Source of the DNA: a virus
Strand: one strand, 5' to 3'
IMG/VR virus record: IMGVR_UViG_3300027896_000041
Location: 1 to 61,128 of that record
Length of the DNA: 61,128 nt
The first letter of the stretch is position 1; each line of letters opens with the position of its first letter. Positions 227 to 47,635 of this stretch are shown piece after piece. The notes beneath the pieces were generated by a model. That model made no database searches. It saw only the letters and a list, made by a program, of their open reading frames with translations, and was not told the origin of the DNA. A program made the translations under genes and the position numbers.

Positions 227-448
227 TTAAACTTCAATAGGATCTTCTTCTGAATCATCACATTCGTCACTTTCATTTGTGATGAAGATAATTTTAATCG
301 CGTCAATCTTTCCATCTTTATCTTCCTGGAAAAATGCAGTATAACCACCATCACCAAATCCAGAAGATGATACTGCACCAAAAGGTATTACTTCGTAGAT
401 TTCTTCTGTGATTTTATCTTCGATTTCTTTTTCTGTTGGTTTGGGTAT
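227..448 (-). CDS. Small acidic protein with a non-standard start codon
   Basis: A frame of about 73 codons ends IEV-stop at 227 and is clearly coding in composition: a glycine-rich segment (SSSGFGDGGYTAFF) followed by an acidic tail (DECDDSEEDPIE). It has no ATG, GTG or TTG start. An in-frame TAG lies just upstream of candidate ATT (454) and ATA (448) starts, next to AGAGG, and the frame overlaps the end of the preceding gene. Translational coupling through a rare start codon is the simplest reading. Function unknown. Confidence 0.6.
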   Translation of the reverse strand: MPKPTEKEIEDKITEEIYEVIPFGAVSSSGFGDGGYTAFFQEDKDGKIDAIKIIFITNESDECDDSEEDPIEV

Positions 449-449
449 A

Positions 450-686
450 TTAATCCTCTATTGGTTCATTTAGACTTTTAGGTGTATGAACAGTCAATTT
501 AAAAATTCCAATGCTGTCGAATTCACCAATAATATGAAAATTTTTAGATCTAGTTTCTCCTGCTCGAATTTCTTCCAAACATTTTTCTATTTCATCTGTA
601 TCAAGCTTATCATCAACTTCGACCATTCTACAACCATTAAGAGCCGTGAACGTGGCGTTATCGTTTAGAACCATTATTCTTGACAT
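450..686 (-). CDS. Unknown small protein
   Basis: The start is placed at the ATG giving MSRIMVLNDN because AAAGGAG precedes it; an ATG 27 nt further out at 713 lacks a good site. The protein mixes charged and hydrophobic segments and ends NEPIED. It overlaps the end of the preceding gene by about 29 nt, suggesting one operon. No family recognised. Confidence 0.7.
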   Translation of the reverse strand: MSRIMVLNDNATFTALNGCRMVEVDDKLDTDEIEKCLEEIRAGETRSKNFHIIGEFDSIGIFKLTVHTPKSLNEPIED

Positions 687-927
687 TTGGTTTCTTATCT
701 CCTTTACTATCATCTTCTAATTTAAAATATTTTTCCAATTCTGTTTTAGTAAGCTTCCTATGAAACACATACATAATAAATGAACTTGATAATGATTCGC
801 CAAAGTATTCTTCTTCGGCATCACCAAGATGTAAATTATATCTTTTTAAAACTTCTTTAAATTGCTTAATAGCTTCTTCCGAAAGATCTGTCCAATCTAA
901 TTGGATAAGCGATGGTGATTTTATCAT
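658..927 (-). CDS. Unknown small protein
   Basis: Start chosen at MIKSPSLIQLDW because GAGGAAG precedes it and its ATG overlaps the stop of the upstream gene as ATGA. The tail is very basic (KPNVKNNGSKR). No recognised domain. It is coupled to the genes on both sides. Confidence 0.72.
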   Translation of the reverse strand: MIKSPSLIQLDWTDLSEEAIKQFKEVLKRYNLHLGDAEEEYFGESLSSSFIMYVFHRKLTKTELEKYFKLEDDSKGDKKPNVKNNGSKR

Positions 928-1139
928 TCTAACTTCCTCATTATTGTCCATTTCTTATTTGGTATTTTGTCTCCATTCAATGGATGATATGGATTATATG
1001 AAAATCCTGATTCTTCTACTATTTTGCATGCTGTTTCTAAACTATCAACATATCCAATAGGTTTATATTCCAATCTAAAACTCTTTGTCTCATGCATACT
1101 GCACATGAATAAATCTTCAATTATATAAATTTCTGACAT
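924..1139 (-). CDS. Unknown small protein
   Basis: The ATG at 1139 (MSEIYIIEDL) has AAAAAGGAG at ideal spacing. A longer frame to 1217 would run through the stem-loop at 1166-1239 and is rejected. The protein has about 71 residues with a Cys and Met-rich stretch (LFMCSMHETKSF). No family recognised. Confidence 0.72.
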   Translation of the reverse strand: MSEIYIIEDLFMCSMHETKSFRLEYKPIGYVDSLETACKIVEESGFSYNPYHPLNGDKIPNKKWTIMRKLE

Positions 1140-1165
1140 AAACTCCTTTTTCTGCGTGTAGGGAG

Positions 1166-8351: not shown

Positions 8352-8965
8352 AGCTTTATCGAATGTCCTTTGTGTATTTTAAAATTATCTTTATATCTCT
8401 TTGCAATATCAACACTATGAAATATTACAAGATTCTCAGCATTGTTTCTTTCTGCTGCTCGTGTAAAATTATATGAACCAGTAATAACGATATAATCATC
8501 CATCACCATAATCTTATTATGAGCAATAGCATGCTTGTGATCCATCACAACTGAAATATTATTAGTTACTAGTGCAGTAATAAACTTCATATAATTAGTA
8601 CAAAGCTTATCAATTACAACATCAACATTAACACCCCTATTATGAGCATTGATCAAAGAATCAACAATTCCTTGAGATGTCATTACATATGTTTGAATAT
8701 AAATATAATTAGTCGCTGAATTAATTTCTGATACAATATTTGACAAGCAATCTTCACCACCATAATTAGGGCTAAAGAACACTCTTGTTGTAGGAACTAT
8801 ATTAGAACAACCGGTTACCCACTCTACTCGCTCCCATTGTGTAGTTCCAGCATAACGAACTACAAAAGTATCTTTTGGTGCTGCATTTAAAGTTCTTTCA
8901 AACAAATCTCCAGCTACGACACTGCTTGCTGCAAGTAATACATAAAAAGCAAAATTAGTAAACAT
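8348..8965 (-). CDS. Secreted phospholipase D-family nuclease
   Basis: A signal peptide (MFTNFAFYVLLAASSVVAG) precedes a single HKD motif: H149, K151 and D156 in HNKIMVMDD, followed by GSYNFTRAAERNNAE. Length (205 residues) and the single motif match Nuc-type endonucleases, which act as dimers on DNA in the periplasm. It overlaps the prepilin-like gene by 4 nt. It could degrade DNA in the periplasm or modify the envelope, but the target cannot be told. Confidence 0.82.
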   Translation of the reverse strand: MFTNFAFYVLLAASSVVAGDLFERTLNAAPKDTFVVRYAGTTQWERVEWVTGCSNIVPTTRVFFSPNYGGEDCLSNIVSEINSATNYIYIQTYVMTSQGIVDSLINAHNRGVNVDVVIDKLCTNYMKFITALVTNNISVVMDHKHAIAHNKIMVMDDYIVITGSYNFTRAAERNNAENLVIFHSVDIAKRYKDNFKIHKGHSIKL

Positions 8966-8974
8966 TGAACTCCT

Positions 8975-9262
8975 TTAAAAAATTACTACACTCTCTTCAT
9001 TGTGACGTCGCAAAGCAGGAATAATTACACACTTTGCTTCTTTTGTAAATTCAACACTATTCCTGCAAATATAAATTCGATCTATCCTATATCCTCTAAG
9101 TTTATTATACCAACCATTTTCAGGTTCTATAAAAATCCATTTATCAATGGCAGTCGATATACTATTCTCTGTCCAATTGTGCAGATGATCTATTAGACCA
9201 GATATTATACGACCTCGATGATAATCTAATTTATGTTTTGCTGCAACTAATACAATTAACAT
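8975..9262 (-). CDS. Unknown protein
   Basis: 95 residues starting with a hydrophobic strand (MLIVLVAA), followed by mixed secondary structure with several His and Arg residues. No recognised domain. It lies between the lysozyme-like and the secreted nuclease genes. Confidence 0.68.
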   Translation of the reverse strand: MLIVLVAAKHKLDYHRGRIISGLIDHLHNWTENSISTAIDKWIFIEPENGWYNKLRGYRIDRIYICRNSVEFTKEAKCVIIPALRRHNEESVVIF

Positions 9263-9272
9263 ATATACCTCA

Positions 9273-9620
9273 TTAATTTATATGAACTCGAACCTTATCC
9301 CAGTATCCATCTGGATCAATTCCGAGTTTATAATCTGGACCATAATGCCAACATAGAGCATAATCTTGACTCGTTGGTTCTCTATTAATTCTATCAAATC
9401 TGCAATAATGTGAAGTATATAATACACATATAATTCTTGATCTCCAAATATCAAGTCGATCTTCGAATTTAAAATATAATCCATAAATAGTATTTACATC
9501 TGTCACAACATCTGGGTGACACTGAAGAACACCAACAGCTAATCCATTATCGCCGACAGCATGAAAATCTCCACGACTCTCAACTATAGTAAGAGCATCA
9601 AGTAACTTTTTCCAGTTCAT
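9273..9620 (-). CDS. Probable lysozyme-like transglycosylase
   Basis: The start is placed at MNWKKLLDAL (9620), behind GGGAGG; a GTG 27 nt upstream lies before that site. The segment ALTIVESRGDFHAVGDNG followed by AVGVLQ resembles the soluble lytic transglycosylase core (catalytic Glu in an ESRG motif, then an AxGxxQ strand). About 115 residues is short for the family. A role in peptidoglycan cleavage is likely but not certain. Confidence 0.6.
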   Translation of the reverse strand: MNWKKLLDALTIVESRGDFHAVGDNGLAVGVLQCHPDVVTDVNTIYGLYFKFEDRLDIWRSRIICVLYTSHYCRFDRINREPTSQDYALCWHYGPDYKLGIDPDGYWDKVRVHIN

Positions 9621-9768
9621 GTATTTTATTTTCCTCCCATTGAACACAATTCATTATATCAATTATCATTCCACATTTAGGACATTTCGTTTTACCATTA
9701 CCTATTGAAATACCATAAGGAATTTCTTGTTTACATTCAGTACAAATCTTCTTTGGTCTAGTAACCAT
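9598..9768 (-). CDS. Small zinc-ribbon protein
   Basis: 56 residues reading MVTRPKKICTECKQEIPYG followed by KCPKCGMII: two CxxC knuckles of a zinc ribbon. Its ATG overlaps the stop of the upstream gene (TAATG), and it ends 23 nt inside the transglycosylase-like gene in another frame. The function may be nucleic-acid or protein binding. Confidence 0.75.
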   Translation of the reverse strand: MVTRPKKICTECKQEIPYGISIGNGKTKCPKCGMIIDIMNCVQWEENKIHELEKVT

Positions 9769-9941
9769 TAGTAATCATCCATTAAAGATTTTGTAATTGC
9801 TCTAGCTATAGCAGTTTTTACTTTCGATCGATCAGCTTTATCAAATGTTTCATGGTGATAAATATTAGAATCGACATCTTCATGTAAATGAATTCCATCG
9901 GATTCCAGTTCATCAATAATATGATCAACTAAGTTTTTCAT
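9768..9941 (-). CDS. Unknown acidic small protein
   Basis: 57 residues (MKNLVDHIIDELESDGIHLH at the start), with AAAGGAATTT directly before the ATG and a TAATG overlap with the zinc-ribbon gene. Several His residues. No family recognised. Confidence 0.74.
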   Translation of the reverse strand: MKNLVDHIIDELESDGIHLHEDVDSNIYHHETFDKADRSKVKTAIARAITKSLMDDY

Positions 9942-9955
9942 AAATTCCTTTAAAA

Positions 9956-10032
9956 TGGTGGACCCAGTAGGACTCGAACCTACGACCCGAACATTATGAG
10001 TGTCCTGCTCTAACCAACTGAGCTATGGGTCC
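9956..10032 (-). tRNA. tRNA with CAU anticodon (Met or Ile2)
   Basis: Acceptor GGACCCA/TGGGTCC, discriminator A, encoded CCA, D arm GCTC/GAGC, anticodon loop CTCATAA. It is not an initiator, as it lacks the GGG/CCC anticodon-stem pairs. Elongator Met and lysidine-dependent Ile2 cannot be separated by eye. Confidence 0.93.
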
Positions 10033-10039
10033 GTAAGGA

Positions 10040-10231
10040 TTATCCTATCAATATCTGTCTTAATCTGTGACGAATTTCTAACAATTCATTATATTCTAAG
10101 GTAAGACGCTTAACAGCTTGTTCTTTAATTTCCTTTGGCATATTGGGATCTAACTCCATATCAACTTTTGAACAGAATGTATTCGTGAGATGATCTTCAA
10201 GACCTCTGATAATTTTATCCTTGGACATCAT
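10040..10231 (-). CDS. Unknown helical protein
   Basis: 63 residues, mostly predicted helix (LTLEYNELLEIRHRLRQIL). GGGAG precedes the tandem ATG codons. It is followed 8 nt later by a tRNA gene. Confidence 0.7.
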   Translation of the reverse strand: MMSKDKIIRGLEDHLTNTFCSKVDMELDPNMPKEIKEQAVKRLTLEYNELLEIRHRLRQILIG

Positions 10232-10253
10232 CTTCTATATTTCTCCCATATAT

Positions 10254-10263
10254 TAATTTATTC
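10254..10263 (-). promoter_or_regulatory. GAATAAATTA motif
   Basis: Exact copy 23 nt before the gene starting at 10231 and downstream of tRNA-Lys; it would drive the 63-residue gene and the CAU tRNA. Confidence 0.5.
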
Positions 10264-10287
10264 AATTCGATCAGGGAGATTATGAAA

Positions 10288-10363
10288 TGGTACGCCTGCA
10301 CGGACTCGAACCGTGGACCCGCAAATTAAAAGTTTGCTGCTCTACCAACTGAGCTACAGGCGC
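10288..10363 (-). tRNA. tRNA-Lys (UUU)
   Basis: Acceptor GCGCCTG/CAGGCGT, discriminator A, encoded CCA, anticodon arm GCAAA-CTTTTAA-TTTGC. All arms pair. Confidence 0.95.
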
Positions 10364-10390
10364 ATTGCAATTATAATATGTTCTATAATT

Positions 10391-10425
10391 AAAACAAGGG
10401 CGGTTAGAAATGAATCTAACCGCCC
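10391..10425 (-). terminator. Rho-independent terminator
   Basis: An 11-bp stem GGGCGGTTAGA/TCTAACCGCCC with a 6-nt loop, followed by TTGTTTT on the minus strand. It ends the two-gene unit 10442-12875, whose GC content is a little higher than its neighbours. Confidence 0.9.
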
Positions 10426-10441
10426 AAGTTCAATTTACTTA

Positions 10442-10807
10442 TTATGCATCAAGCAGTGCTTGAAGTTCTTCAGCTGACTTACCTTCAAGATCCGCATTCT
10501 GTTTCTTCTCAATGATCTCAAGAATTCTCTCATTCCTCTTCTTCTTGTCGATCTTTTTCTTAGCCTCAGTAGCTTCTTCACGTTTAACGTCAAACACGTG
10601 CTTGACGATATCCATTTTAAGCGTAAGAGTCTTATCTTCCCTTGAATTGATCAGACTCCCGATATCTGAATCCTTCTTGCCTTTTGCAAGACCGACATAT
10701 ATATCATTCAGATCCTTCTCAGAAAGATCAAAAAGATCTTCAGCAGTAATCTGACCACGACACGAGAACCTGATTTTTTCCCTAGCTGCCTGTTCGAATT
10801 TGTCCAT
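10442..10807 (-). CDS. Unknown charged helical protein
   Basis: 121 residues, very charged, starting MDKFEQAAREKIRF and ending with helices (ILEIIEKKQNADLEG, SAEELQALLDA). It lies directly after the 680-residue gene and before a strong terminator, so the two form a unit. The longer, GC-richer style suggests good expression. Function unknown. Confidence 0.78.
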   Translation of the reverse strand: MDKFEQAAREKIRFSCRGQITAEDLFDLSEKDLNDIYVGLAKGKKDSDIGSLINSREDKTLTLKMDIVKHVFDVKREEATEAKKKIDKKKRNERILEIIEKKQNADLEGKSAEELQALLDA

Positions 10808-10832
10808 AACTTTTTCCTTTAACTTTCTTTGT

Positions 10833-12875
10833 TTATATCATTACTTTCATTAGTCTTGCTGTATGTCCATGCACCTTAACCATAATAGAATCCCTCTTAG
10901 TAACACTAAATCCAAGACCTGTCAATTGAGTGTTAGAAGGTTCTACTGTCATTTTGTCTCCAAGTGCTGCAAATACTCGTTTATGTTCTTCGAGTTCAGG
11001 CAGGAGGAATTCATTAAAGAATCCGCTTGGACATTCATCATTTACACAATTTTTCAAAATAAACATATAATGTTTATTACCAATTTTCTTATCATCCCAG
11101 AAATTGGGAGATAGCAAACACATGGATACAGGATGAAGAGTATTAGTTTTCAAACCACAAACATCAAGTGTTGTAGCAGAGCCACTCTTATCTGAATTTA
11201 CTAGTTCGAATCCTTTTGCTTTGCTATACTTCACATTTGCGACTGGTATTTTTCTACCAGAAGGATTGCTGATGTCAAAATCATGGATTACTCCATCGAA
11301 CTCGATTTGAGCTCTGAACCCATTCTTTCCACCTCTATTAGAATATACATCAACAAAGAATTCATAAGTGCCTTCACGCATCTTACTAGTACTTGTATAA
11401 ATTATATTTTCAACTGCAATCTTTTGATCAGGATGAATAATATCAACATCTAATGAACCACTAGATGCATGACCAGTCTTATTTCCAAAAAAGATTTCAT
11501 CATAATGATCAGGTTCTATGCAATGAGCATCATAATCATTCTCATTATCTTTATTCTCATTCCATTGGATTGAAAATCTCAATACACCTGATACATTACC
11601 ACCAGCTTCTTTAACTCTCTCTTTCATCGAGTCAGTAATATTACCAACATATGCCCAAGAGAAATTATTACCCCATTTGAACAATGTCTTGCTGTCTGAA
11701 TGAACTGGAGCAATCAATGAAACGATATTACTCCTATGTCTATTCTCCAAAAGCAATTCAACCTTAGTAGCCGTAGGTAATACATCTGATATGAACTTAT
11801 CAATATGTATTTCGGTAGCTCTATCAAAAGATTTAGAATTAATCTTAATATCCTTTGAGAGCTCATCAAATATATCTTCATTCTTCATGCGCTTAGAAGA
11901 ATCACGATCAGCAAACAATACATTGTTAACCGTAATATCATCTATGGTTGCAAACCTTCTCCTCAATGAATTGGTAAGTCCGAGACGTTCCACTTCATCT
12001 TTAGCATCCTGCAACATCTTCTTTGTAAAGATTGGTTTAGGACGTTTGTAATTGGTCGGTGCAACAATAGCTTCATATTTCTTCACAGCATCATCAAGAG
12101 GTATAGTTCCTTCACTAATATCAATAAGCAATACACCAATAGAATGGTTTCTTATCTTACTGAGTACAGGTCCATGTTTCTTTGATGCTATCCAGCAATA
12201 ATTATCACGAAGTTTAGTAGGGAGTTTATTAAACTCCTTCTTTACCAATACCAACTTCTGGAGTGTATTCAACCACTCGACACCCTTGTATATTGAATCC
12301 TGTTTAATGAGTTCAATTACGGTGGATAATGCATCATCACTAATAGTTTCAAGAGATCTCTTTAGAACATTCTTCATGTCCCTCTGAGCCGCCATAAGAC
12401 TTTCATTAGATTCCTTTGATGCATTCTGAAATGCTTTTGGAATCTTTGTAAAGAAATGTTGCCACTTGGTAACAGTTCCATCTTTTTTATCTTGACCCAT
12501 ATTAAAATCAACACCAATCTCTTTAAGAGTGGTACTGAAAATATCCGATACTACTTTAGAAGCAATAAAGTTCTTGAGTGCTGTGAATACTGTCTTATAT
12601 GTTTCGTCGTCGGTCTCAAAATCCCATATGCTCCTCACAGTACTGTCATTGTTGATAGCAACAACATTACCGAATTGACGAACAAATTGCTTGCAATGCT
12701 GACAATCATGTTCTCTTCTTTCTTTATAAATTCCATTAGTTCCCGCTGGAAAACTATCAAGATATAAATTCCAAAGAACATCCTTATCGACTTCTACAAC
12801 ATACAATCTTTCATTCTGAGAAAACATCTCATCAATATTTTTAGATAGTGCTGTTTTGACTTGATTAAAAGTCAT
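10833..12875 (-). CDS. Large phage protein of unknown function
   Basis: 680 residues. Near the N terminus is a CxxC-containing segment (EHDCQHCKQFVRQFGNVVAI). Around residues 440-540 is a beta-rich domain with DYDAHCIEPD, IFFGNKTG, LDVDI and GTYEFFVDVY, similar to YfaP-type domains with DLDLHxxEPDG motifs. The middle is helical. The architecture resembles large uncharacterised proteins I associate with phages and prophages. No catalytic motif is evident. Confidence 0.75.
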   Translation of the reverse strand: MTFNQVKTALSKNIDEMFSQNERLYVVEVDKDVLWNLYLDSFPAGTNGIYKERREHDCQHCKQFVRQFGNVVAINNDSTVRSIWDFETDDETYKTVFTALKNFIASKVVSDIFSTTLKEIGVDFNMGQDKKDGTVTKWQHFFTKIPKAFQNASKESNESLMAAQRDMKNVLKRSLETISDDALSTVIELIKQDSIYKGVEWLNTLQKLVLVKKEFNKLPTKLRDNYCWIASKKHGPVLSKIRNHSIGVLLIDISEGTIPLDDAVKKYEAIVAPTNYKRPKPIFTKKMLQDAKDEVERLGLTNSLRRRFATIDDITVNNVLFADRDSSKRMKNEDIFDELSKDIKINSKSFDRATEIHIDKFISDVLPTATKVELLLENRHRSNIVSLIAPVHSDSKTLFKWGNNFSWAYVGNITDSMKERVKEAGGNVSGVLRFSIQWNENKDNENDYDAHCIEPDHYDEIFFGNKTGHASSGSLDVDIIHPDQKIAVENIIYTSTSKMREGTYEFFVDVYSNRGGKNGFRAQIEFDGVIHDFDISNPSGRKIPVANVKYSKAKGFELVNSDKSGSATTLDVCGLKTNTLHPVSMCLLSPNFWDDKKIGNKHYMFILKNCVNDECPSGFFNEFLLPELEEHKRVFAALGDKMTVEPSNTQLTGLGFSVTKRDSIMVKVHGHTARLMKVMI

Positions 12876-35701: not shown

Positions 35702-36715
35702 TTAATGCGTCACTATCCCATCACTAAAGTATTTTGAAAATAATAAACATGTATGATTGCATCCTCTACATAGTGAATTATAATCATTTTTTATTGCGTC
35801 TCTTGCTGCAGGTAAAATCATTTTATCACTATCTGAAAATATTTCATTCAATTTTAATTTAGGAAATTCGACTCCTCTGATCCTCAAACACAACCGAAAT
35901 GTCCCATCACTATCCACAGTCACATTATGCAAGTCTTTATGTATTGCACATTTCATTTCACATGGAAGAATACCATATAACTTGATCAACATTTCAGGAA
36001 TATGAACCTTCAATGAAGAGTCGGACATAATATCCATAAATTGTTTGGCAACACCTTCATTTTTATGAACTAACAAATGTTCATCTTTGATTGTAGAAAA
36101 ATCATAATAATTACTTTTCTTCAGATCGATCGTTGTTATGCTACTATAGATATTATTCTCAGAAAGAATTTTTACAGTATCATATAAATAAGTATAATTT
36201 TGTGATGTTACAGTCATCTCAGCAACAACATCTTCTGCTATTCCTTGAGACTTTAGGAGACACAAATTCTTAAATCCAGCTATCGTTTTATCAATAGCAT
36301 GATCTTTTCTAGAACTGTATCCGCCATATAATTCCGGATCTACAGAGGCACTAAATCCTCTAATCTTACCAACGTCTTTATACAACTGTAAAATTTTTGG
36401 TTGAATCTCTTCTGTGTTATTTGATATTATAGTGTAATATACATTCCGTGCGTGACAGTGCTTAATAATATCAGTCAATCCATTATACAAAAAAGGTTCA
36501 CCGCCATAAAAAATTAAAAATACATTAGGGTTATTCAAAACGAGCTTGTCAATAATCTCAATCCACTTGGTGCTGGTCAATTCATTATCCCGATAATGTT
36601 TCATATTAGGATACAATTTTGGCATATCTTCATAATCACGAACGATAGAACAATAATCACACCGCAAATTACATCTTCTAGTCAACAAAATATTTGCTAT
36701 CTGAATTTTATCCAT
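35702..36715 (-). CDS. Radical SAM protein with SPASM-like C terminus
   Basis: TRRCNLRCDYCSI (CxxxCxxC) binds the 4Fe-4S cluster that cleaves S-adenosylmethionine, followed by IFYGGEPFLY (GGEP motif). The C-terminal part has DGTFRLC and CRGCNHTC, a SPASM/twitch-like cluster. This architecture is found in peptide- and protein-modifying enzymes such as RiPP or sulfatase maturases. It is not typical of QueE. The substrate is unknown. A terminator follows the neighbouring gene upstream, so this gene may have its own promoter. Confidence 0.84.
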   Translation of the reverse strand: MDKIQIANILLTRRCNLRCDYCSIVRDYEDMPKLYPNMKHYRDNELTSTKWIEIIDKLVLNNPNVFLIFYGGEPFLYNGLTDIIKHCHARNVYYTIISNNTEEIQPKILQLYKDVGKIRGFSASVDPELYGGYSSRKDHAIDKTIAGFKNLCLLKSQGIAEDVVAEMTVTSQNYTYLYDTVKILSENNIYSSITTIDLKKSNYYDFSTIKDEHLLVHKNEGVAKQFMDIMSDSSLKVHIPEMLIKLYGILPCEMKCAIHKDLHNVTVDSDGTFRLCLRIRGVEFPKLKLNEIFSDSDKMILPAARDAIKNDYNSLCRGCNHTCLLFSKYFSDGIVTH

Positions 36716-37887: not shown

Positions 37888-38157
37888 CTACTGGGGCTTG
37901 TTCATTTTCGACACATCTACCTTAGTTCCTTCAAAAGATACCAGATTCTTAGCATCAAAATCTATAATAATATTTGCTGCCTTTGATCTCATAATCATAT
38001 TTGAAAGTGCCTTGATCTGGGGCGTTACAGGTACTTCTATTCTGAGTTCTGTATTATCCTTAAACTTAAAGAACATACCATCACTAGTATCCTGCAATTG
38101 AAAAAATGAATCATTACCAACTTCTATCTTCAGAGGACCTTTCTTAATCGTAACCAT
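37888..38157 (-). CDS. Small structural-type protein, frame may continue by -1 shift
   Basis: 89 residues, beta-rich (LKIEVGNDSFFQL, NTELRIEVPV, ANIIIDF). After the stop at 37888 the -1 frame stays open to 37832 and encodes a Pro/Val-rich tail (APVVGVPVQVPAPMVAP). The tail looks coding, so either a frameshift is used or a mutation has shortened the gene. Function unknown. Confidence 0.7.
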   Translation of the reverse strand: MVTIKKGPLKIEVGNDSFFQLQDTSDGMFFKFKDNTELRIEVPVTPQIKALSNMIMRSKAANIIIDFDAKNLVSFEGTKVDVSKMNKPQ

Positions 38158-38168
38158 TGTACTATCTC

Positions 38169-38768
38169 CTATTTGTTTCTGATTAGTTGTGTTGATATTA
38201 CTCCTGGCAAATCAGATAATACCAGTATTGTCAGAGTCTTAACTCCTTCTACAGACGAACAATTATCAAAATGAAATTTAAGATATGGATTAACATCATC
38301 TGTATTTATTATTTTATTCTTGATTTCAAAATAATGTGCAGTAAACAAATCATTCATTCGTTGCTTATCCGCTAAAGTATTCAAATCAATCAAAGGCAAA
38401 CAAAACGATAAACTATCGATCCATTCATGCCTAATTATATATTTAACAAAATCAGAAACTTCATCTAGTTTCTGCTCTACTAAACCAGTTCTAAGAATAT
38501 ATTCTTTTACAAAACCGAAATTATATTCAAAATCAAGTTTATCTAATAATCGTTTTATATAACTTTGAAATTCATCTATAGGAAGTTGTGATTTAATATC
38601 TTCAAAATGCAAATCAAACTCTATTTTTGAATACCTAGTTCCTATTGATTCTAATACAGAATCTTTTAAAAACATTAGATTCTGATTAACCATTAATTGA
38701 TCTTGTTCAATATCTACTTCATCATACGGAGAAATAACCTCTGACAATCTTTGATCTAAACTCTTCAT
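38169..38768 (-). CDS. Unknown helical protein next to RNA polymerase genes
   Basis: 199 residues, mostly helices, without Cys clusters or membrane segments. It is the last gene before the polymerase block, separated from beta only by an inserted endonuclease. A link with transcription is possible but based on position alone. Confidence 0.72.
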   Translation of the reverse strand: MKSLDQRLSEVISPYDEVDIEQDQLMVNQNLMFLKDSVLESIGTRYSKIEFDLHFEDIKSQLPIDEFQSYIKRLLDKLDFEYNFGFVKEYILRTGLVEQKLDEVSDFVKYIIRHEWIDSLSFCLPLIDLNTLADKQRMNDLFTAHYFEIKNKIINTDDVNPYLKFHFDNCSSVEGVKTLTILVLSDLPGVISTQLIRNK

Positions 38769-38774
38769 ATTTTT

Positions 38775-39632
38775 TTATTCCTTTGTAATTAATTCCAATA
38801 CAGTTTTAAAATCGTTTATAACTTGTTCTTTATTAACGAACCAATCTGTATCTTTAATAATAAAAAATTTACATTTCAGATGGGCTGTTAACTCTTTTTC
38901 TCTTCTTTCATCATGTTCTATATAACAAGTACTGTTATGGTGTGATTCATAAACTTCTATTATAAGATTTAAATCTTCTAAATATCCATCAGGATAATAA
39001 CCAATACAGGTAAAATTTCTTTGAATTTTTCGACCAGTAATAGCTTCTAATTCATCTAATATTAATTTTTCATTCTTTCCCATTTGAACTTGATATTCTG
39101 ATCCTTGTGATTCTATATTATGAATAAAGTTTTCTCTATATGATTGTCTTGCCTCTGGAGTTCTGCAATATAAATCACCAAAATGCAAAATCTGAGTATC
39201 TATTTTTTTCTTCTTTATATCTTCAATTTTTGAAGGGTGATCTACACCATATCGATCTATACATGTTTGCTTAAATTTTTCTTTGAGCTCATCTGAATGT
39301 AATGGATTTATCACTCCATATTTTTTCATCATACCACTTTCTTTTACATCATCCAACATCAATATATTTTCAACACCAAAATTTTTCTTACATGTATCTC
39401 TCATCTTTTCTTGTATTTTCTTATTTTTAACTGCGCATGATGGTCCACAAAATTCATTATATGCTTCTGATAAATCTCTATTAAATTTCTTCTTTTTCCC
39501 GCATTCCGGGCAGATATCTTCATTCTCTTTTTTCAAATAAGTATCATAATATTGCTGAAGAGTAAGATTATGTATTTTTTGGATGTGATGACCGATCCTC
39601 TTCAATTCTATATTACAAATTTCACATTTCAT
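38775..39632 (-). CDS. Homing endonuclease with GVxN repeats
   Basis: CEICNIELKRIGHHIQKIH finger, then CPECGKKKKF, then repeats FGVENILML, YGVINPLHS and YGVDHPSKI that match those of the protein at 4273-5025. The nuclease end has LIIEVYESHHNS and FFIIKDTDWF. Its ATG overlaps the beta stop codon (ATGA), so it is translated after beta and sits exactly at the gene junction. Confidence 0.82.
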   Translation of the reverse strand: MKCEICNIELKRIGHHIQKIHNLTLQQYYDTYLKKENEDICPECGKKKKFNRDLSEAYNEFCGPSCAVKNKKIQEKMRDTCKKNFGVENILMLDDVKESGMMKKYGVINPLHSDELKEKFKQTCIDRYGVDHPSKIEDIKKKKIDTQILHFGDLYCRTPEARQSYRENFIHNIESQGSEYQVQMGKNEKLILDELEAITGRKIQRNFTCIGYYPDGYLEDLNLIIEVYESHHNSTCYIEHDERREKELTAHLKCKFFIIKDTDWFVNKEQVINDFKTVLELITKE

Positions 39633-42600
39633 AATTTTGCGTTTAACATCATTGAAGCTAAATAGACTTCTAGTGTTGATTTAGTTGCTCCGCTAGTAGA
39701 TTCTCTATACTTAGCTTCGCCCTTCTGAATGATATCGAATAAAATTTCATCTTTCAATTTCTTATTATCAGATAGCGGTCCTAATAATTCGCGTAGTAGA
39801 GTTTCGGCTCCATGCGCAGCTATTGCCCACGTATCAAATTCACCAAGTCTCTGTCCACCACCAGCAGATGCACCAGCTGTAGGCTGAGATGTACCAGTTG
39901 CATACTTGCCAATAGATCTAGCATTAATCTTATATTCTGCCTGCTGTTCCAGCTTCTTATAATAGAGATATCCTATTGCGACAGGATTTTTTGTCATCGT
40001 ATTATATTCAGGAAGTTTTAAATTATATGCTGATTTAAGTCCGGCCATTTTTAAAGTCTTAGATATCATTTCCTTACTAGGTACTTGGAATGGCGGAACT
40101 ATAATAGGAAGTATATACCCAGATGATTGAATCTTCTTGATATAATCAGAATATTGTTTATCTGATAGTGATGAAAATGATCGAACTATACTTCTTGATA
40201 ATGATTTATCTTTCGTTGCATCCATAGAGGTATAAATATTAGCAACCAATTTCATTGCTTTTTCAGTTTTAACTGGACCCATAGCAACTAATTGTTTGGC
40301 TAAAAACTTAGCAATTAAACCAGTATACATTTCATAAATCGTGCCAGGATTCATGCGGTTGATTACCGCAACAGGATTTAGAATAATGTCTATCGGTTCA
40401 CCCCACGGAGTAACAGGCATATTTTCAACTTTCTCAACTAAAGTAATAACACCTTTTCCACCATGACTATTAGCAAGCTTATCACCAACAATAGATACAT
40501 CGTACCGTTCTATTTTAAATACAACTCGTATACCAGAAAATGGTGTTTTAGAACCATGTTCATTTGTTAAGAATCTTTCTGGGAAAGGACCTTTCATCTC
40601 TTCCCATTTTCTTTTGAAGTTTTCAAATGCAGGTATTAGAACAGGGAATTTCTTAATAGATATATTTGGATAAACTTCTATTGCAATAATCTTGCCACCA
40701 GGTGATCTTTTAACCTGCTGACCTTCTATTAATTCTTCCTCTTCTATACCTAACAACTCTTCAACTTCTTTAGATGATCTAACGATTAAAACATCGCCTT
40801 TTTTAGTAAGGTCACCTTCTTTAGCAATTTGTTTGATGGTAGAGGTTGCTTTAATATCTATTGTTATTTCTTCATATGAAGTAGAAGTATATTTTTGACT
40901 TGCTACTCTATCAGAAATAATATAACCATCTTCAAATGCGTACCCTTTCCATCCCATTATAGCTGTTAAAAGATTACATCCAACTGAAATAACACCATCT
41001 TTAATATGTTTTCCTTCAGCAAGAATTTGACCAGCTTTTACCCTTTGACTATCTTTAACAACCGAAGTGAAATAATTTAAAGAACTCTTACCCTGAGCAG
41101 ATCTTAATATTTTAGTATCTAATGGAACTACATGGTTTTTACCCTTTGCATCTTTAACATACACTGCATTTCCACTCTGTCTAATAATCTCACCATCAAC
41201 AGGAGATTTCTTAACATAAGAATCAGTAAGCATTGAGGTCATTACTGTTTCAAATCCAGTTTGCACAAGTGGTTGTTCAGCACCTAATACAGGAATAGCT
41301 TGTTTTGTTTGAGATGCTTGCAACATAACTCGGCAACCATCATCAGAAGATACAAATGGAACACACGCTGAAGATGGACTTAGGCAAGATGACTTTATAT
41401 CTTTATCTTCAAATTTTCCAAATGAACCTCTAGAACTTCCCATAGCAGCATCGATTGTCAACTGATTAATTACACCGATAGTTCCATTTTCTGGAGTGTC
41501 CATCGGGTCGAAATTACCATAATAACTATCGTTAATATTTCTAGCGGATTTAATAACACTATGATCATCAGCTAAACCACCAGGACCAATAGGAGTAACT
41601 CTGGTTAAACTAGACAGCTCTTCATACGGATTAATATTTTCAAGAGATCTAATCATCTTACTACTATTAACGATATTACTAACTATCTGCTTAGTATCAC
41701 AATAATATTGAGCATCTTCGTCACCATGTTCTTTCTTCTGTCTATACTCATTATATGAACCAAGAATCAATTTCTGAATCTGATAATTGAATATTTCAGA
41801 GCTTCTGATTCTTTGTTTACTGATATCATTTCTATTGTATATAAGATTATTTGCTAGTCCCTTACAAATATAATAAATACAACCAGAAAATGTAGTTGGG
41901 AGCAATTTGGTTTTTAGAATCTGAACGGCAATAGGTTCCATAATATTATCTAATACAGTATCTATCTGGAATATACAATTTCTATTATCAGTCTGTTTAA
42001 TAAGGAGATTATGAATTGCTTCTTTTGAAGTTAAAGATGCTGTATCAAATATACCTTTCATCTCATATAATGAATTTATCAAAATCCTAGCTTCTGGAGT
42101 TGTGAAAGTAAATATCATAAATTTACCATCAGTCATCTCATATACTTTCAGATTTTTATCTTCTGGTTTTGCATCAACTATGCTAGTTTGAATTCCGAAC
42201 AACTTACATGTTTCATAAAAACCAATAGCATAAGACAATACCAAGAAGGTGGGTAATTCATATCCTGCTATATAGGTATTGAAATAAGATTTATGTTTTG
42301 TTAATTTATGGTGTGTCGCTACAGTAGAAAACATAGTTTCTAGTTTAGCTTCTGTTGGTTTAATAAAGAAAATTGGATCAATTATGATCTGAAAGATCAA
42401 ATATTTCTTTGATCCATTAATCATGAAGGTTCCATCATCTTGAATTTCTGGAAGATCTATAACTACTTCATGATTTTTCTTTTTCTCATCCTGCATAGTG
42501 ATAGAATATCTAACGGTCTTTGTTGGTTCAAGATCACCAGGATCTACAGCAAGAGATTCTTTCTTAAATTTAACAACCTTCAAAGGAAACGTCTTCTTGG

Positions 42601-43783
42601 TCTCTAGTAGTTTAAAAGATCTGAGTAGATCAGATTCAAAGGATTTTGTAAAGTCGACTTTCCTTTTACTTAAAATCTTACTAGGATTCTTATTCTCATT
42701 AACAGAATTCATACTAACTTTACTAAATACAGCATCTCTGGATTCATTTTTAAAAGTATCATCTTCAAGAATAGATTGTGATAATTCAGTCTTTATACTC
42801 TTTATAGTAGATGTATAATTTTCTGGTTTAATATTATCTGTGATATTATCAGATCTCTTTTTATCTCTAGTAATACTAAAAAGCGTTGATGCTATTGTTA
42901 ATTTATTAGCATCATCTGGATGAACTGCTGCCTGAGAAGTAATAGCAACTTGTTCATCTTCTGGCATCCTTTGAACATAAGATTTGATCGCCTTCTGCAT
43001 TTTTAAATTTACTATAGGTGCAATTTCCTGTCCCTGTCCTAACGATTCTTGATCATGATTACCCTGAACAGTATTCACAACATTCTTTGAAAAATCTGTT
43101 ATCTTTTCATCATCTTGAGTAGACTGATCAGTTAACATTATAGACTTCAAACTTTTAAATACGGTAAATAATCTAGAAGAGGATATACTGCCATCTGGTT
43201 TTGATAACAAAGTATACTTTACGGTCCCCTCTGATTGAATCCCCAGCATCACATAATCGAAAGGTATCCCTTCTTTAGAATTGAACATTGCATATAATGC
43301 AGTAGCCCGTCTGTTCCAAATAGAATCAGCTATGGGTTGATTTAAATCCACATAATAGAGCAAAACATTTTTTCTATTAGGATATTCTGCTTTAACAGAA
43401 TTTAGATATGAAAAAATTTTCGAAAGTATTATGGATCTTCTGTAATTCCCTTTTTTAAACTTAGCATCTAACAATTGAAGAAAAACAGAAACATCAATAA
43501 AAAGATTGGTGATAAATGATTTATTTATTCTTATCGGAGAAATCTTATTTGAATAAAATTGCGATAGTGTTTTTGGGTTGGGTACTATTCTGGGTAATAT
43601 AGAAGGAAGAACCGTTCCATAACGAACAAACCTTTTTGGTATCTGCATTTTTGGATACGCTAAAGAAAAAGATGTATTTTCAGGATAAAAAATAATGTTA
43701 TAAAATTCATCATTTAAATCTTTTGTAATAGCTAGACTATTAGTATAGAACGGGTACAATCGAAGTTTCTTCAAATCAATCAT
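39629..43783 (-). CDS. RNA polymerase beta subunit with a long N-terminal extension
   Basis: Catalytic-core motifs of bacterial beta are present: DDGTFMINGSKK (449-460), NPYEELSSLTR..GPGGL (718-737), FDPMDTPENGTIGVIN (758-773), QAIPVLGAEQPLVQTG (828-843), EDGYIISDRV (951-960), GDKLANSHGGKGV (1100-1112), DIILNP...RMN (1132-1145) and GGQRLGEFDTWA (1309-1320). The first 370 or so residues have no counterpart in bacterial beta; the region matches the separate protein at 43793-44569. The chain is one piece, unlike the split subunits of phiKZ-like phages. With beta-prime it forms the active site for RNA synthesis. Confidence 0.95.
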   Translation of the reverse strand: MIDLKKLRLYPFYTNSLAITKDLNDEFYNIIFYPENTSFSLAYPKMQIPKRFVRYGTVLPSILPRIVPNPKTLSQFYSNKISPIRINKSFITNLFIDVSVFLQLLDAKFKKGNYRRSIILSKIFSYLNSVKAEYPNRKNVLLYYVDLNQPIADSIWNRRATALYAMFNSKEGIPFDYVMLGIQSEGTVKYTLLSKPDGSISSSRLFTVFKSLKSIMLTDQSTQDDEKITDFSKNVVNTVQGNHDQESLGQGQEIAPIVNLKMQKAIKSYVQRMPEDEQVAITSQAAVHPDDANKLTIASTLFSITRDKKRSDNITDNIKPENYTSTIKSIKTELSQSILEDDTFKNESRDAVFSKVSMNSVNENKNPSKILSKRKVDFTKSFESDLLRSFKLLETKKTFPLKVVKFKKESLAVDPGDLEPTKTVRYSITMQDEKKKNHEVVIDLPEIQDDGTFMINGSKKYLIFQIIIDPIFFIKPTEAKLETMFSTVATHHKLTKHKSYFNTYIAGYELPTFLVLSYAIGFYETCKLFGIQTSIVDAKPEDKNLKVYEMTDGKFMIFTFTTPEARILINSLYEMKGIFDTASLTSKEAIHNLLIKQTDNRNCIFQIDTVLDNIMEPIAVQILKTKLLPTTFSGCIYYICKGLANNLIYNRNDISKQRIRSSEIFNYQIQKLILGSYNEYRQKKEHGDEDAQYYCDTKQIVSNIVNSSKMIRSLENINPYEELSSLTRVTPIGPGGLADDHSVIKSARNINDSYYGNFDPMDTPENGTIGVINQLTIDAAMGSSRGSFGKFEDKDIKSSCLSPSSACVPFVSSDDGCRVMLQASQTKQAIPVLGAEQPLVQTGFETVMTSMLTDSYVKKSPVDGEIIRQSGNAVYVKDAKGKNHVVPLDTKILRSAQGKSSLNYFTSVVKDSQRVKAGQILAEGKHIKDGVISVGCNLLTAIMGWKGYAFEDGYIISDRVASQKYTSTSYEEITIDIKATSTIKQIAKEGDLTKKGDVLIVRSSKEVEELLGIEEEELIEGQQVKRSPGGKIIAIEVYPNISIKKFPVLIPAFENFKRKWEEMKGPFPERFLTNEHGSKTPFSGIRVVFKIERYDVSIVGDKLANSHGGKGVITLVEKVENMPVTPWGEPIDIILNPVAVINRMNPGTIYEMYTGLIAKFLAKQLVAMGPVKTEKAMKLVANIYTSMDATKDKSLSRSIVRSFSSLSDKQYSDYIKKIQSSGYILPIIVPPFQVPSKEMISKTLKMAGLKSAYNLKLPEYNTMTKNPVAIGYLYYKKLEQQAEYKINARSIGKYATGTSQPTAGASAGGGQRLGEFDTWAIAAHGAETLLRELLGPLSDNKKLKDEILFDIIQKGEAKYRESTSGATKSTLEVYLASMMLNAKL

Positions 43784-43792
43784 AATAAATCC

Positions 43793-44569
43793 TTACGATG
43801 TAAGTACTTTGTTTTTTCTGTGTTTATCAATAAATCTCAGAATTGATGCTTTATCTTCTGATGGATCTACTGGTTCACCAGCAGAAATATTTAATTCTTC
43901 CTCTGGTTGCTTCTCAAGATCTTCTTCCTTTGAAGATAACTGTTTTAATATAGAAGTGATTTTAACTGGATCAAAGTGCTTTTGATCTTTGTTATATATA
44001 CTCATATATTTAATCAATCCATCTTTTTCAATTGCTAAAAGAACATTATCAAATGGAAATGCCCCTTCTCCTACCTTTGCAATCATAGCTAATACAACTG
44101 ATCTTCTCTGTATTAATTGCTCTGGTATATCTTTTGATACATCCGCATGATATATCAATATACTATTATATCCACCAAACTTTTTCGATTCTGTTAAATA
44201 GGTAATAATTTTAGATAATACTACTGGTCTACTATACACTGATTTTCCATATTGCTCATCTAATTTTGTGAAAAATAAACCAGTATCAATAAACGTATTT
44301 GAATTATCCGGTCTTGTGATTGGAATTAAACCGAGAGATTTCTTATAAGGCATAAGATCACTAGCTGTCACTATGATCCTAGGCATCACTGATGGAATAA
44401 TAGAAACTTTTTTAGCATACTGTCTTCTGATGTTTAATTTAGGATACGTTGATAAAAAATCACTATTCTCAGATACGAAAATTATGTTGTATGGTTTCGG
44501 TTCATTGTTCGGAATAGATATCTGATTAGTTGCATATGGAAACAACTTCATCTTCATTACATTTAACAT
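43793..44569 (-). CDS. Stand-alone paralogue of the beta N-terminal extension
   Basis: 258 residues. It aligns along nearly its whole length with residues 1-230 of the beta protein: LFPYATN/LYPFYTN, YNIIF, YPKLNI/YPKMQI, SVMPRI/SILPRI, NTFIDTGLFF/NLFIDVSVFL, LSKIITYL/LSKIFSYL, FDNVLLAI/FDYVMLGI. No polymerase motifs are present. It lies between beta-prime and beta, 9 nt before beta. It is probably a duplicated domain working as an extra polymerase subunit or regulator. Confidence 0.85.
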   Translation of the reverse strand: MLNVMKMKLFPYATNQISIPNNEPKPYNIIFVSENSDFLSTYPKLNIRRQYAKKVSIIPSVMPRIIVTASDLMPYKKSLGLIPITRPDNSNTFIDTGLFFTKLDEQYGKSVYSRPVVLSKIITYLTESKKFGGYNSILIYHADVSKDIPEQLIQRRSVVLAMIAKVGEGAFPFDNVLLAIEKDGLIKYMSIYNKDQKHFDPVKITSILKQLSSKEEDLEKQPEEELNISAGEPVDPSEDKASILRFIDKHRKNKVLTS

Positions 44570-44599: not shown

Positions 44600-47500
44600 T
44601 TAGAAGTTTCCTGTGATAAGTTTCTCTAGTATTGTTTCATCTCCAGGTCTAGTATAAACTAATCCAGTGGTAATAGATTGTTTCGGATTTTCAAAAGCGA
44701 ATGATTGTAACCATGATTCCATTCCTGGTATAGATTTCAATGATTTAACTATCGGATCATAGTTCTTATTTAACCTAGCAGGATATGACGGATTCCCCTT
44801 ATCTCTCAATAGATTAGAAGCAAGAATTTCAAAGTGAATCATGTCAGCTCTCTTATTCAAATCAGTATAAATATCGTATAATTTCATACAGAAGTGATCA
44901 GCATTTCTCCAAGGTGTCTTACCAGAAAATGTAGCATTAATAATCTTAATCTTTTCCGAGAATACCTGTGGTGTTGGTAAGCAATCAAATACAACTGATC
45001 CCTTTTTGAATTTAATTGATATTATACCATTATGCTCTAGAAATACTTTATCTCTTAGATCTATAGCAATTTTATTATCAATAGTAGCATCAGCTGTAAA
45101 TGATAAATATTTAATTCTGAAGAAAGCATAATTTAAAGATAGTGTATCTTTTGTTTGCATTATATCTGCATGCGGATCTTCATACTCAGAAATATCTATT
45201 GTTATTTCACCATCGGTTTCAGCTACCAGTTTGGATTCTTTTTGAACGAAAGATTTTAATAGGTAATGTTTTTCTGCATCAGGAATAATTCTAGATAATT
45301 CATTTATAATATCTACCGTCTTAATACTAACAGAACCGCCAGTATGGAATGTTCTCATAATAGTCTGAGTCAAACACTCACCGCATATCTCACCAGCAAG
45401 TATCCCAACATATTTGGTTCTATTTCTTAATAACAAGTTACCATAGCATGTTAAACAAATATCTTTAGAAAGACAATAAAGCGGCGACCTAAGTGATACA
45501 ACCTTACCTATATACTTATTATCAAACGGAACTATTTTGCCGTCTGGATCAACTAAATATCTCCCCGATAATCTCTTAGCTATATCAGGAGTAACTTTCA
45601 CAGTGAGATATCTTTTAGTCTTACAATCTTTAACTCTTGGATCTGCTTCCACTCTCTGTAATGCAAATACTAATTGTCTGGATAAATATCCAGTATCAGA
45701 TGTATTAATAACTCTATCTATAATACCTTGTCTAGATCCATATCCACTCTGGAAGAAATCTTCACTATTAAATCCATCAGAGAATGAAGATGATAATACT
45801 CTAGGTCCAGAAGGTCCAGTAATTATACCTTTAGCTACAAGAATCTGAGACGCCTGTCCATATCCTTTTAAACCACCAGCTTTACCCATTAGACCTAAAT
45901 TAGTATTTTTGGTTTCTAAATATGTTCTTAAAGCTTTTTGAATCTTATTTAAAATAATCTGAGCCTTCTCTGGATTTGACTCTTTTTTTAATTCTTCTTT
46001 GAGTGCTAAAACATCAGCCGGTATATCCATCAAATCATCTAATGAGAGTGTTGGTGCCATGATAGTATAGTATTTCATACCCAGATTAATCATATCATTT
46101 ATGAAAGTAACATAAATCTGCTTATCAACATGTCCATATAACTTATATGCTTGCTCAGCTAAATTTGCTACATCGTCCTTTGATATTGGTTTATTAATAT
46201 TCATTTTCTTAGTAGGCATTATTTTATTAAAAATAACTCTTCCTACTGTAGTTACTTCACCATCATATCTAATAATATCAAGAGGATGAAGTGTTTGTAA
46301 TTCATCGTCTGATTTCATAACTTTAGGAGCATTCTTAAATGGTGAATCTTGTGTTAAAGCATAAATTCCGATTACCATATCTTTACTGAAATCATCTGAT
46401 AAAGCATTCATTGAATCCTTTGATTCAGATGAAATCATTTTATCTCTAGCTTCGTCGATAGCTTCTTTAGTTACAGGAACATAAATAGCCATTGCATCAC
46501 CATCAAAATCTGCATTGAATGCTGCACATTTAGCCACCGATAATTGAATCGTTTCTCCTTCCGTCATGACCGGTTTGAATCCTTGAACCGATTCACAATG
46601 CAGAGCAGGATCTCGTTTAGCTATTACTACTTTACCTATAATAGCTCTTGATACAGATGCTTTAATTACTTCTTCTAATTCCAGAGGAATCTTGTATCCA
46701 TTATGAATACTTGTTAATACAGATTTAAGAGCAGGAATTGAAAGTGTTGATACTGGATCCCACATTTTTAATAGTTCTGCTAATTTTTCTCTATTAACAT
46801 TTTTACTATTATATAGGTCATATAAAACAAATGGTTCATATAATTTAACCAGAGCTTTGAAAGGAATTCCTATCTCATCCACCTTTATTTTACCTGCACC
46901 GCCAGTAATTACAGCGCGTCCTGTAAAGTCCGCTCTTTTGCCCAAAATGCTCTGTCTGATCATACCTTCTTTTTTAGAAACTTTCGAAATTAAAAATTCA
47001 TATAGATCATCTACAAGTTCCTGCATTTTCTGAGATAATATATCATACATCGGACCACTAAAAACTGATAACGATTGTATCTGCAGCGACTGTCTCATTA
47101 TTTTGAAATAATAATCATTAACGGGTGGTGTTCTAAAACCACCATGTATTTCATCGACTTCTTGATCTCTAAATCCTGCAGGCATCACAATACATTTATC
47201 GATAAAAGCTAAACCCTTTTTATGATATGCTAGAGCCATATTCTTTAGATCTATTCGAAACTGATCCTCTTCTACTCGAGCTAGCATCTTTTCAAAATTT
47301 TTCATTACTGCATTCAAACTGTTTATTTCACCAGCTTTATCTTCTATTAAGAGACCAGTCTTATCCATTTTATAAGCTGCTTTTCTTGTGATGGCTAAAA
47401 TTATTTTCTTATTCAATCTCTCTATAGGTTTAACTAATGCAGGATGCAAAACTTTGCAATGCAAATCTATAAAAGAGAAATTTCGTTTTCTCTCAATTGA

Positions 47501-47635
47501 TTCTTTAGAACCAAAAATAATTTCTGAAAATAGACCGTCCGGGTGAAAAGCTGCTGATTTACCGACATTAAATTCAGTTGACGTAACGGGTTTCATGTTA
47601 GCAGTCACCCTATCAAGTTCCATTAAATAAATCAT
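44600..47635 (-). CDS. RNA polymerase beta-prime subunit
   Basis: NADFDGDAMA (374-383) holds the catalytic Mg-binding aspartates. GKRADFTGRAVI (232-243), the bridge-helix region around RVINTSDTGYLSRQLV (642-657) and the trigger loop TQTIMRTFHTGG (756-767) are conserved. A zinc site is formed by C671, C721, C727 and C730 (CLSKDICLTCYG). The N-terminal zinc finger of bacterial beta-prime is absent and the chain is 1011 residues, against about 1400 in E. coli. No alpha or omega gene is seen in the window. Confidence 0.95.
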   Translation of the reverse strand: MIYLMELDRVTANMKPVTSTEFNVGKSAAFHPDGLFSEIIFGSKESIERKRNFSFIDLHCKVLHPALVKPIERLNKKIILAITRKAAYKMDKTGLLIEDKAGEINSLNAVMKNFEKMLARVEEDQFRIDLKNMALAYHKKGLAFIDKCIVMPAGFRDQEVDEIHGGFRTPPVNDYYFKIMRQSLQIQSLSVFSGPMYDILSQKMQELVDDLYEFLISKVSKKEGMIRQSILGKRADFTGRAVITGGAGKIKVDEIGIPFKALVKLYEPFVLYDLYNSKNVNREKLAELLKMWDPVSTLSIPALKSVLTSIHNGYKIPLELEEVIKASVSRAIIGKVVIAKRDPALHCESVQGFKPVMTEGETIQLSVAKCAAFNADFDGDAMAIYVPVTKEAIDEARDKMISSESKDSMNALSDDFSKDMVIGIYALTQDSPFKNAPKVMKSDDELQTLHPLDIIRYDGEVTTVGRVIFNKIMPTKKMNINKPISKDDVANLAEQAYKLYGHVDKQIYVTFINDMINLGMKYYTIMAPTLSLDDLMDIPADVLALKEELKKESNPEKAQIILNKIQKALRTYLETKNTNLGLMGKAGGLKGYGQASQILVAKGIITGPSGPRVLSSSFSDGFNSEDFFQSGYGSRQGIIDRVINTSDTGYLSRQLVFALQRVEADPRVKDCKTKRYLTVKVTPDIAKRLSGRYLVDPDGKIVPFDNKYIGKVVSLRSPLYCLSKDICLTCYGNLLLRNRTKYVGILAGEICGECLTQTIMRTFHTGGSVSIKTVDIINELSRIIPDAEKHYLLKSFVQKESKLVAETDGEITIDISEYEDPHADIMQTKDTLSLNYAFFRIKYLSFTADATIDNKIAIDLRDKVFLEHNGIISIKFKKGSVVFDCLPTPQVFSEKIKIINATFSGKTPWRNADHFCMKLYDIYTDLNKRADMIHFEILASNLLRDKGNPSYPARLNKNYDPIVKSLKSIPGMESWLQSFAFENPKQSITTGLVYTRPGDETILEKLITGNF

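What the first reader, a model, noticed from the sequence alone, without database searches (positions are those of the whole stretch)
39629..44569. RNA polymerase beta has a 370-residue phage-specific extension, duplicated as a separate gene
Bacterial-like beta sequence starts near residue 385; everything before is extra. The first 230 residues of the extension share many aligned motifs with the 258-residue product of the adjacent gene. A domain both fused to beta and encoded alone, between beta-prime and beta, suggests an unrecognised polymerase component such as a promoter-recognition or regulatory subunit working as a pair.
Basis: partly seen in the sequence, partly recalled or inferred. 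Interest (0 to 1): 0.87.

Follow-up and report, generated by a model that had tools for sequence, protein, structure and literature searches.

The report
Phage polymerase domain with free copy
This phage's RNA polymerase carries an extra, positively charged front domain that is shared with the polymerases some giant phages pack into their particles, and this one phage also makes a free-standing copy of that domain, whose job is not yet known.

Summary
The 258-aa product (43793-44569, minus) matches the beta N-terminus (39629-43783, minus) at 31% identity over 216 residues, E 7e-33.

The extension is not peculiar to this phage. It was aligned in 33 other beta subunits of related metagenomic phages, one copy per genome, always fused to beta. 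Structure alignment puts the start of bacterial-like beta near residue 343-350. Residues 1-215 form a confidently predicted, basic alpha/beta domain. Fold search and profile alignment link it to the start of N-beta of jumbo-phage virion RNA polymerases (AR9/PBS1, phiR1-37, S6, LPJP1). It was not detected in the second polymerase that the larger relatives also encode.

The free copy was found only in this window. It looks like a partial duplication of the 5' end of the beta gene, set between beta-prime and beta, and keeps the family's conserved residues. A general two-copy pair is therefore unlikely.

Best reading: a tethered nucleic-acid-binding module of a virion-type polymerase, probably used in initiation, plus a retained lineage-specific free copy. 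The nucleic-acid role is inferred from charge and context, not shown. Packaging in the virion is untested.

The parts
43139..43783 (-). N-terminal basic alpha/beta domain of beta (residues 1-215)
   Evidence: AF2 pLDDT about 93 in residues 1-212; E35, N36, D97, Y143 invariant in 35 rows
42758..43138 (-). helical connector of beta (about residues 216-342)
   Evidence: helices in the models; bacterial beta alignment starts after it
39629..42757 (-). bacterial-like beta core (about residues 343-1384)
43793..44569 (-). free-standing copy of the N-terminal domain, 258 aa
   Evidence: E 7e-33 to beta N-terminus; keeps 25 of 44 family-consensus residues and all four invariant ones
44600..47635 (-). 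beta-prime subunit, 1011 aa, unsplit, with NADFDGD motif
   Evidence: Pfam Rpb1 domains; sequence
38775..39632 (-). homing-endonuclease-like ORF (DUF7487) just downstream of beta; not part of the polymerase
   Evidence: absent at this place in L006

Best explanation
The extension is the N-terminal domain of a virion-type phage RNA polymerase beta subunit: a basic alpha/beta domain joined by a helical connector to the start of bacterial-like beta. Shown here: it is conserved, single-copy and fused in 33 related phage betas; it shares predicted fold, position and a weak but controlled sequence signal with the start of N-beta of jumbo-phage virion polymerases; it was not detected in the extension-less second polymerase of the same phage group. 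Inferred: it binds nucleic acid, most likely promoter or upstream DNA, doing part of the work of the initiation factor and alpha subunits that such enzymes lack. The separate 258-aa gene is a lineage-specific partial duplicate of the 5' end of the beta gene. Conserved residues suggest it is still functional, most likely as a free DNA- or polymerase-binding module acting in trans rather than as an obligatory partner.
For: Family-wide conservation, one fused copy per genome. Foldseek hits, all probability 1.00, to PBS1 (E 3.5e-6), G4KK38 (1.1e-4; 1393 aa, the length of phiR1-37 g099) and a Myoviridae polymerase. Profile score 37.4 to nine N-beta N-termini, against 14.3 reversed and at most 19.9 in 39 shuffles, and 11-17 for seven control profiles. 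Net charge of the domain +10 to +26, median +17, against median 0 for 301 ORF starts; N-beta starts of AR9, Goe21, BpSp, SA1, S6, LPJP1, phiR1-37 and Fnp4 are +10 to +18. Jumbo-phage polymerases lack alpha, omega and, for the virion type, any known initiation factor (PMC7598289, PMC13282480). Free copy keeps 25/44 consensus residues, fused copies of its clade 22-24.
Against: No binding, structure or virion data exist. The HH-suite probability of the domain match alone is only 45-49%, and the phiKZ subgroup shows no sequence signal. In 20 of 30 betas a later stretch is at least as basic. The window's beta and beta-prime are not split as in jumbo vRNAPs, and trees do not settle kinship with them. 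The genes lie beside replication genes, not structural ones.
Confidence: 0.45

Rival explanations
1. Assembly platform: the domain replaces the missing alpha subunits, and in this phage fused and free copies form an alpha-dimer-like pair that holds beta and beta-prime together.
For: Jumbo-phage polymerases have no alpha homologs (PMC7598289); alpha works as a dimer; two copies exist here next to both large subunits.
Against: Relatives have one copy only; no alpha-like chain among fold hits (absence is not proof); non-virion phage polymerases assemble without any platform (PMC7598289).
Confidence: 0.15
2. Packaging tether: the basic domain holds the polymerase to the genome or to head proteins so that it enters the virion and is injected; the free copy competes with or helps this.
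For: Fold and sequence link is to virion, not non-virion, N-beta; phiKZ-class vRNAP is packaged and injected (PMC13282480), and cutting its gp178 gene upsets virion assembly (PMC11620839).
Against: No proof that this polymerase is packaged; its genes lie among replication genes.
Confidence: 0.2
3. Enzymatic domain: invariant E35, N36 and D97 at predicted strand ends form a ligand or metal site acting on nucleotides or nucleic acid.
For: Position of invariant residues relative to predicted strands; virion polymerases of Bacillus jumbo phages carry an HD domain on C-beta, so fused enzymes are known in this class (PMC7598289).
Against: No enzyme family matches by sequence, best structural Z 7.8 is within background, and E35 is not kept in AR9 N-beta (alignment).
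Confidence: 0.1
4. The free copy is a non-functional leftover of a tandem duplication, and only the fused domain matters.
For: Found in one phage only; truncated relative to the beta gene; homing endonucleases nearby make rearrangement plausible.
Against: Intact 258-codon frame, ribosome-binding-like upstream stretch, consensus residues kept as well as in fused copies although it has diverged to 31% identity.
Confidence: 0.1

Closest known systems
Virion RNA polymerase N-beta of jumbo phages (AR9/PBS1, phiR1-37 g099, Staphylococcus S6, Listeria LPJP1)
   Same: Core collinear with window 379-1147 (P 3.7e-63); extra N-terminal region of about 420 residues whose start shares predicted fold and sequence signal.
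   Different: Their beta and beta-prime are split into several polypeptides (PMC7598289); the window's are not; no free copy of the domain was seen there; virion packaging is unknown here.
mReC phage polymerases (Weinheimer and Aylward 2020, PMC7481178)
   Same: Metagenomic tailed phages with unsplit beta and beta-prime on a branch apart from bacteria.
   Different: The paper's text has no mention of an extension, of a second polymerase or of a free copy.
Non-virion RNA polymerases of phiKZ and AR9
   Same: Phage multisubunit polymerases without alpha or omega (PMC7618050).
   Different: They use a separate sigma-like subunit (gp68, gp226); no solved chain matched the domain.
Yersinia phage YerA41 and Cobetia phage Carin-5 polymerases
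   Same: Phage beta and beta-prime at about 25% identity.
   Different: Beta about 925 aa without extension; Carin-5 has an annotated sigma factor next to beta-prime.

Membership tests
Jumbo-phage virion RNA polymerase (vRNAP) | beta and beta-prime split into at least five polypeptides | tested here: not met
   single ORFs of 1384 and 1011 aa; split stated in PMC7598289
Jumbo-phage virion RNA polymerase (vRNAP) | N-terminal extra domain before the beta core (feature found here, not part of the published definition) | tested here: met
Jumbo-phage virion RNA polymerase (vRNAP) | present in the virion | not testable with these tools
   needs virion proteomics
Jumbo-phage virion RNA polymerase (vRNAP) | second, non-virion polymerase set in the same genome | tested here: inconclusive
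   two beta genes in eight relatives; the window is a 61-kb fragment with one
Jumbo-phage virion RNA polymerase (vRNAP) | groups with vRNAPs in a tree | tested here: inconclusive
   support 69/55, alternatives not rejected
mReC phages | beta and beta-prime on a viral contig, separate from cellular RNAP | tested here: met
   phage branch apart from two bacterial rpoB, 100/100
mReC phages | tailed-phage hallmark genes | tested here: met
   tail fibre and baseplate hub/lysozyme genes; capsid and terminase not looked for in the window
mReC phages | falls inside the published mReC clade | not tested
   published sequences were not at hand under their names
Bacterial alpha subunit or sigma factor | sequence or fold of alpha NTD or of sigma | tested here: inconclusive
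   no such family in Pfam, PDB sequence or PDB fold lists; absence does not exclude it

The most novel reading that the evidence does not exclude
The domain is the missing initiation module of virion-type phage polymerases, a promoter-binding domain built into beta instead of a separate sigma, and this phage has released a free copy that redirects or regulates the enzyme in trans.
Probability: 0.2. Interest if true: 0.85.

Novelty: new variant of a known kind. Interest (0 to 1): 0.55.

Why it matters
A 2020 review states that no virion polymerase had been purified (PMC7598289), and how these enzymes find promoters is open. A conserved, basic, single-copy N-terminal domain on virion-type beta is a concrete candidate. 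Finding it in unsplit polymerases of phages that also carry a second polymerase without it bears on whether virion and non-virion polymerases arose by duplication or by two captures, which a 2026 review calls unknown (PMC13282480). The natural free copy offers a small soluble-looking version of the domain to study.

Tried and rejected
Sequence searches with the free copy found nothing in phages or viral contigs; relatives were reached only through the beta core. Pfam, NCBIfam, PHROGs and PDB sequence searches of the domain gave no credible family; a dynein light chain hit at E 0.04-0.09 was judged chance. PDB fold search gave no match under E 1e-3, and VIA hits to zeta toxin and FtsY (Z 7.8 or less) lie within the tool's stated background. 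No alpha or sigma chain appeared in the lists, which does not exclude one. Trees meant to decide whether ext-type equals virion-type stayed unresolved; a run including L019, L021 and YerA41 gave evidently false long branches and was set aside. A search for more near relatives through beta-prime returned only the L007 and L008 contigs again. A genome-contig scan gave one hit, on a contig of a Woesearchaeota MAG, not used as host evidence. The phiKZ subgroup of virion N-beta showed no sequence signal for the domain. The 1200-residue model did not show a common placement of the domain on the core (rmsd 34).

Full report
What is there. The window is a 61-kb virus record. On the minus strand it encodes, in order of transcription, a 124-aa protein, beta-prime (44600-47635), a 258-aa protein (43793-44569), beta (39629-43783, 1384 aa), a homing-endonuclease-like ORF, and proteins of 199, 89 and 296 aa, followed by topoisomerase II genes. 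The small protein aligns with the start of beta over 216 residues at 31% identity, E 7e-33.

Where beta begins. Pfam Rpb2 domains start late. Profile alignment with jumbo-phage beta starts at residue 379. In a predicted model of residues 1-1200 (mean pLDDT 76), alignments to solved bacterial beta chains start at model residues 340-366, opposite chain residues 1-30, with Z up to 20.2. The extension is thus about 342 residues: a domain of about 215 residues and a helical connector.

Distribution. Patterns from the beta core reached 26 and then 38 viral loci. The same domain starts the beta in 33 distinct relatives that were aligned; most of these betas are about 1350-1480 aa and a few are split. 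Genome-wide searches gave exactly one match in every positive record (8 of 14 records; 26 of 30). The four negatives were brought in by extension-less polymerase genes. The separate copy was seen in this window alone.

Two polymerases. Eight relatives (G002-G008, G011) each carry two beta genes, one with the extension and one in a frame of about 1000-1125 aa. The extension-less ones examined (L016, L017, L020 and others) show no trace of the domain by profile. This recalls the virion and non-virion pair of phiKZ and AR9 (PMC7598289). Whether they correspond gene for gene is not resolved: in a 769-column tree ext-type and virion-type betas group with support 69/55, and the alternatives are not rejected (p-AU 0.37 and 0.14).

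Kinship of the domain. A model of residues 1-400 from 35 sequences has mean pLDDT 86, about 93 in residues 1-212. Foldseek against predicted viral proteins gives three hits under E 1e-3, all with probability 1.00: a PBS1 921-aa protein (3.5e-6), G4KK38 of 1393 aa (1.1e-4) and a Myoviridae polymerase (4.9e-4). G4KK38 has the length of phiR1-37 g099, annotated as RNA polymerase beta and phage structural protein; that they are the same protein is inferred. Profile alignment of the domain with nine AR9/S6/LPJP1/phiR1-37-type N-termini scores 37.4 (P 2.2e-4), collinear from near the N-terminus; the reversed template scores 14.3 and the best of 39 column shuffles 19.9. Other parts of virion N-beta, extension-less betas, YerA41-type betas and the window's own core score 11-17. 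The HH-suite probability alone (45-49%) would not suffice; agreement of fold, sequence and position makes homology likely (my estimate 0.85). The larger model again finds G4KK38 first, E 1.4e-52 over 1488 columns, but with rmsd 34, so no common placement of the domain on the core is shown.

What it may do. E35, N36, D97 and Y143 are invariant in all 35 aligned rows, free copy included. The domain is basic: net charge +10 to +26, median +17, against a median of 0 for the first 215 residues of 301 ORFs in the fetched loci, 6% of which reach +17. The first 240 residues of AR9, Goe21, BpSp, SA1, S6, LPJP1, phiR1-37 and Fnp4 N-beta carry +10 to +18. In 20 of 30 betas some later stretch is more basic still, as expected in a DNA-handling enzyme, so charge is only suggestive. 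Jumbo-phage polymerases lack alpha, omega and, for the virion type, any known initiation factor (PMC7598289, PMC13282480). Hence the preferred reading: a tethered nucleic-acid-binding module used in initiation. This step is inference.

The free copy. It lies in the beta-prime/beta junction, which in L007 and L008 is about 10 bases wide. Its C-terminal tail can be aligned, loosely, with the next conserved helix of beta, so it looks like a copy of the first 260 codons or so. In the domain tree it is sister to L007, window and L008 with weak support (92/47), inside a supported clade with L055 (100/98). So the duplication may be old within this small clade, or the copy evolves fast, or it came from an unsampled relative. 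It keeps 25 of 44 family-consensus residues, as many as fused copies of its clade (22-24), and has a ribosome-binding-like stretch upstream. It is therefore probably functional, but dispensable for the polymerase class as a whole.

The extension and its duplication are right, and a promoter or regulatory role is still possible. A pair as a general device is not supported, and the domain is not particular to this phage. The polymerase is not filed as a jumbo-phage vRNAP, because the split-subunit feature was tested and not met. No mention of this extension was found in the passages searched of PMC7481178, PMC7598289, PMC7618050, PMC13282480 and PMC11620839; subscription papers and preprints were not available.

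Noticed in passing
G002-G008, G011 (loci L033-L040, L047-L054): Each of these phage contigs encodes two different multisubunit RNA polymerase beta genes, one with and one without the extension.
   Followed up: partly
L026:7814-14041, L029:4283-10486, L030:6815-13027, L031:2-6115: Single reading frames of about 2040-2075 aa match beta and then beta-prime, so the two subunits appear fused in one protein.
   Followed up: no
L012:687-2327 and 8738-11221; L064:4069-5466; L076:6965-9673: Beta is broken into separate frames in several relatives, in L012 by about 6 kb holding many small ORFs, recalling the intron-rich polymerase genes of AR9-like phages.
   Followed up: no
window 38775-39632: Homing-endonuclease-like ORF (DUF7487) between beta and the 199-aa gene; absent there in L006, while L008 has an ORF of a similar zinc-finger type at the same place.
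   Followed up: partly
window 37888-38157 and 38169-38768: Genes of 89 and 199 aa downstream of beta have counterparts of similar size and place in L006-L011 and L013, with no family match for the window's copies; possible further polymerase factors.
   Followed up: no
L004:7906-15942 (Vibrio phage D181): Polymerase genes annotated as hypothetical: a beta part, a homing endonuclease, then a 1006-aa frame matching beta and the start of beta-prime.
   Followed up: no
L105 (BPGB01000002.1): A relative of this beta (39% identity) lies on a contig binned in a Woesearchaeota MAG, possibly a misbinned phage.
   Followed up: no
window 35702-36715: A 337-aa protein with a CxxxCxxC radical-SAM-like start lies among the replication genes and has a close counterpart in L006.
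   Followed up: no
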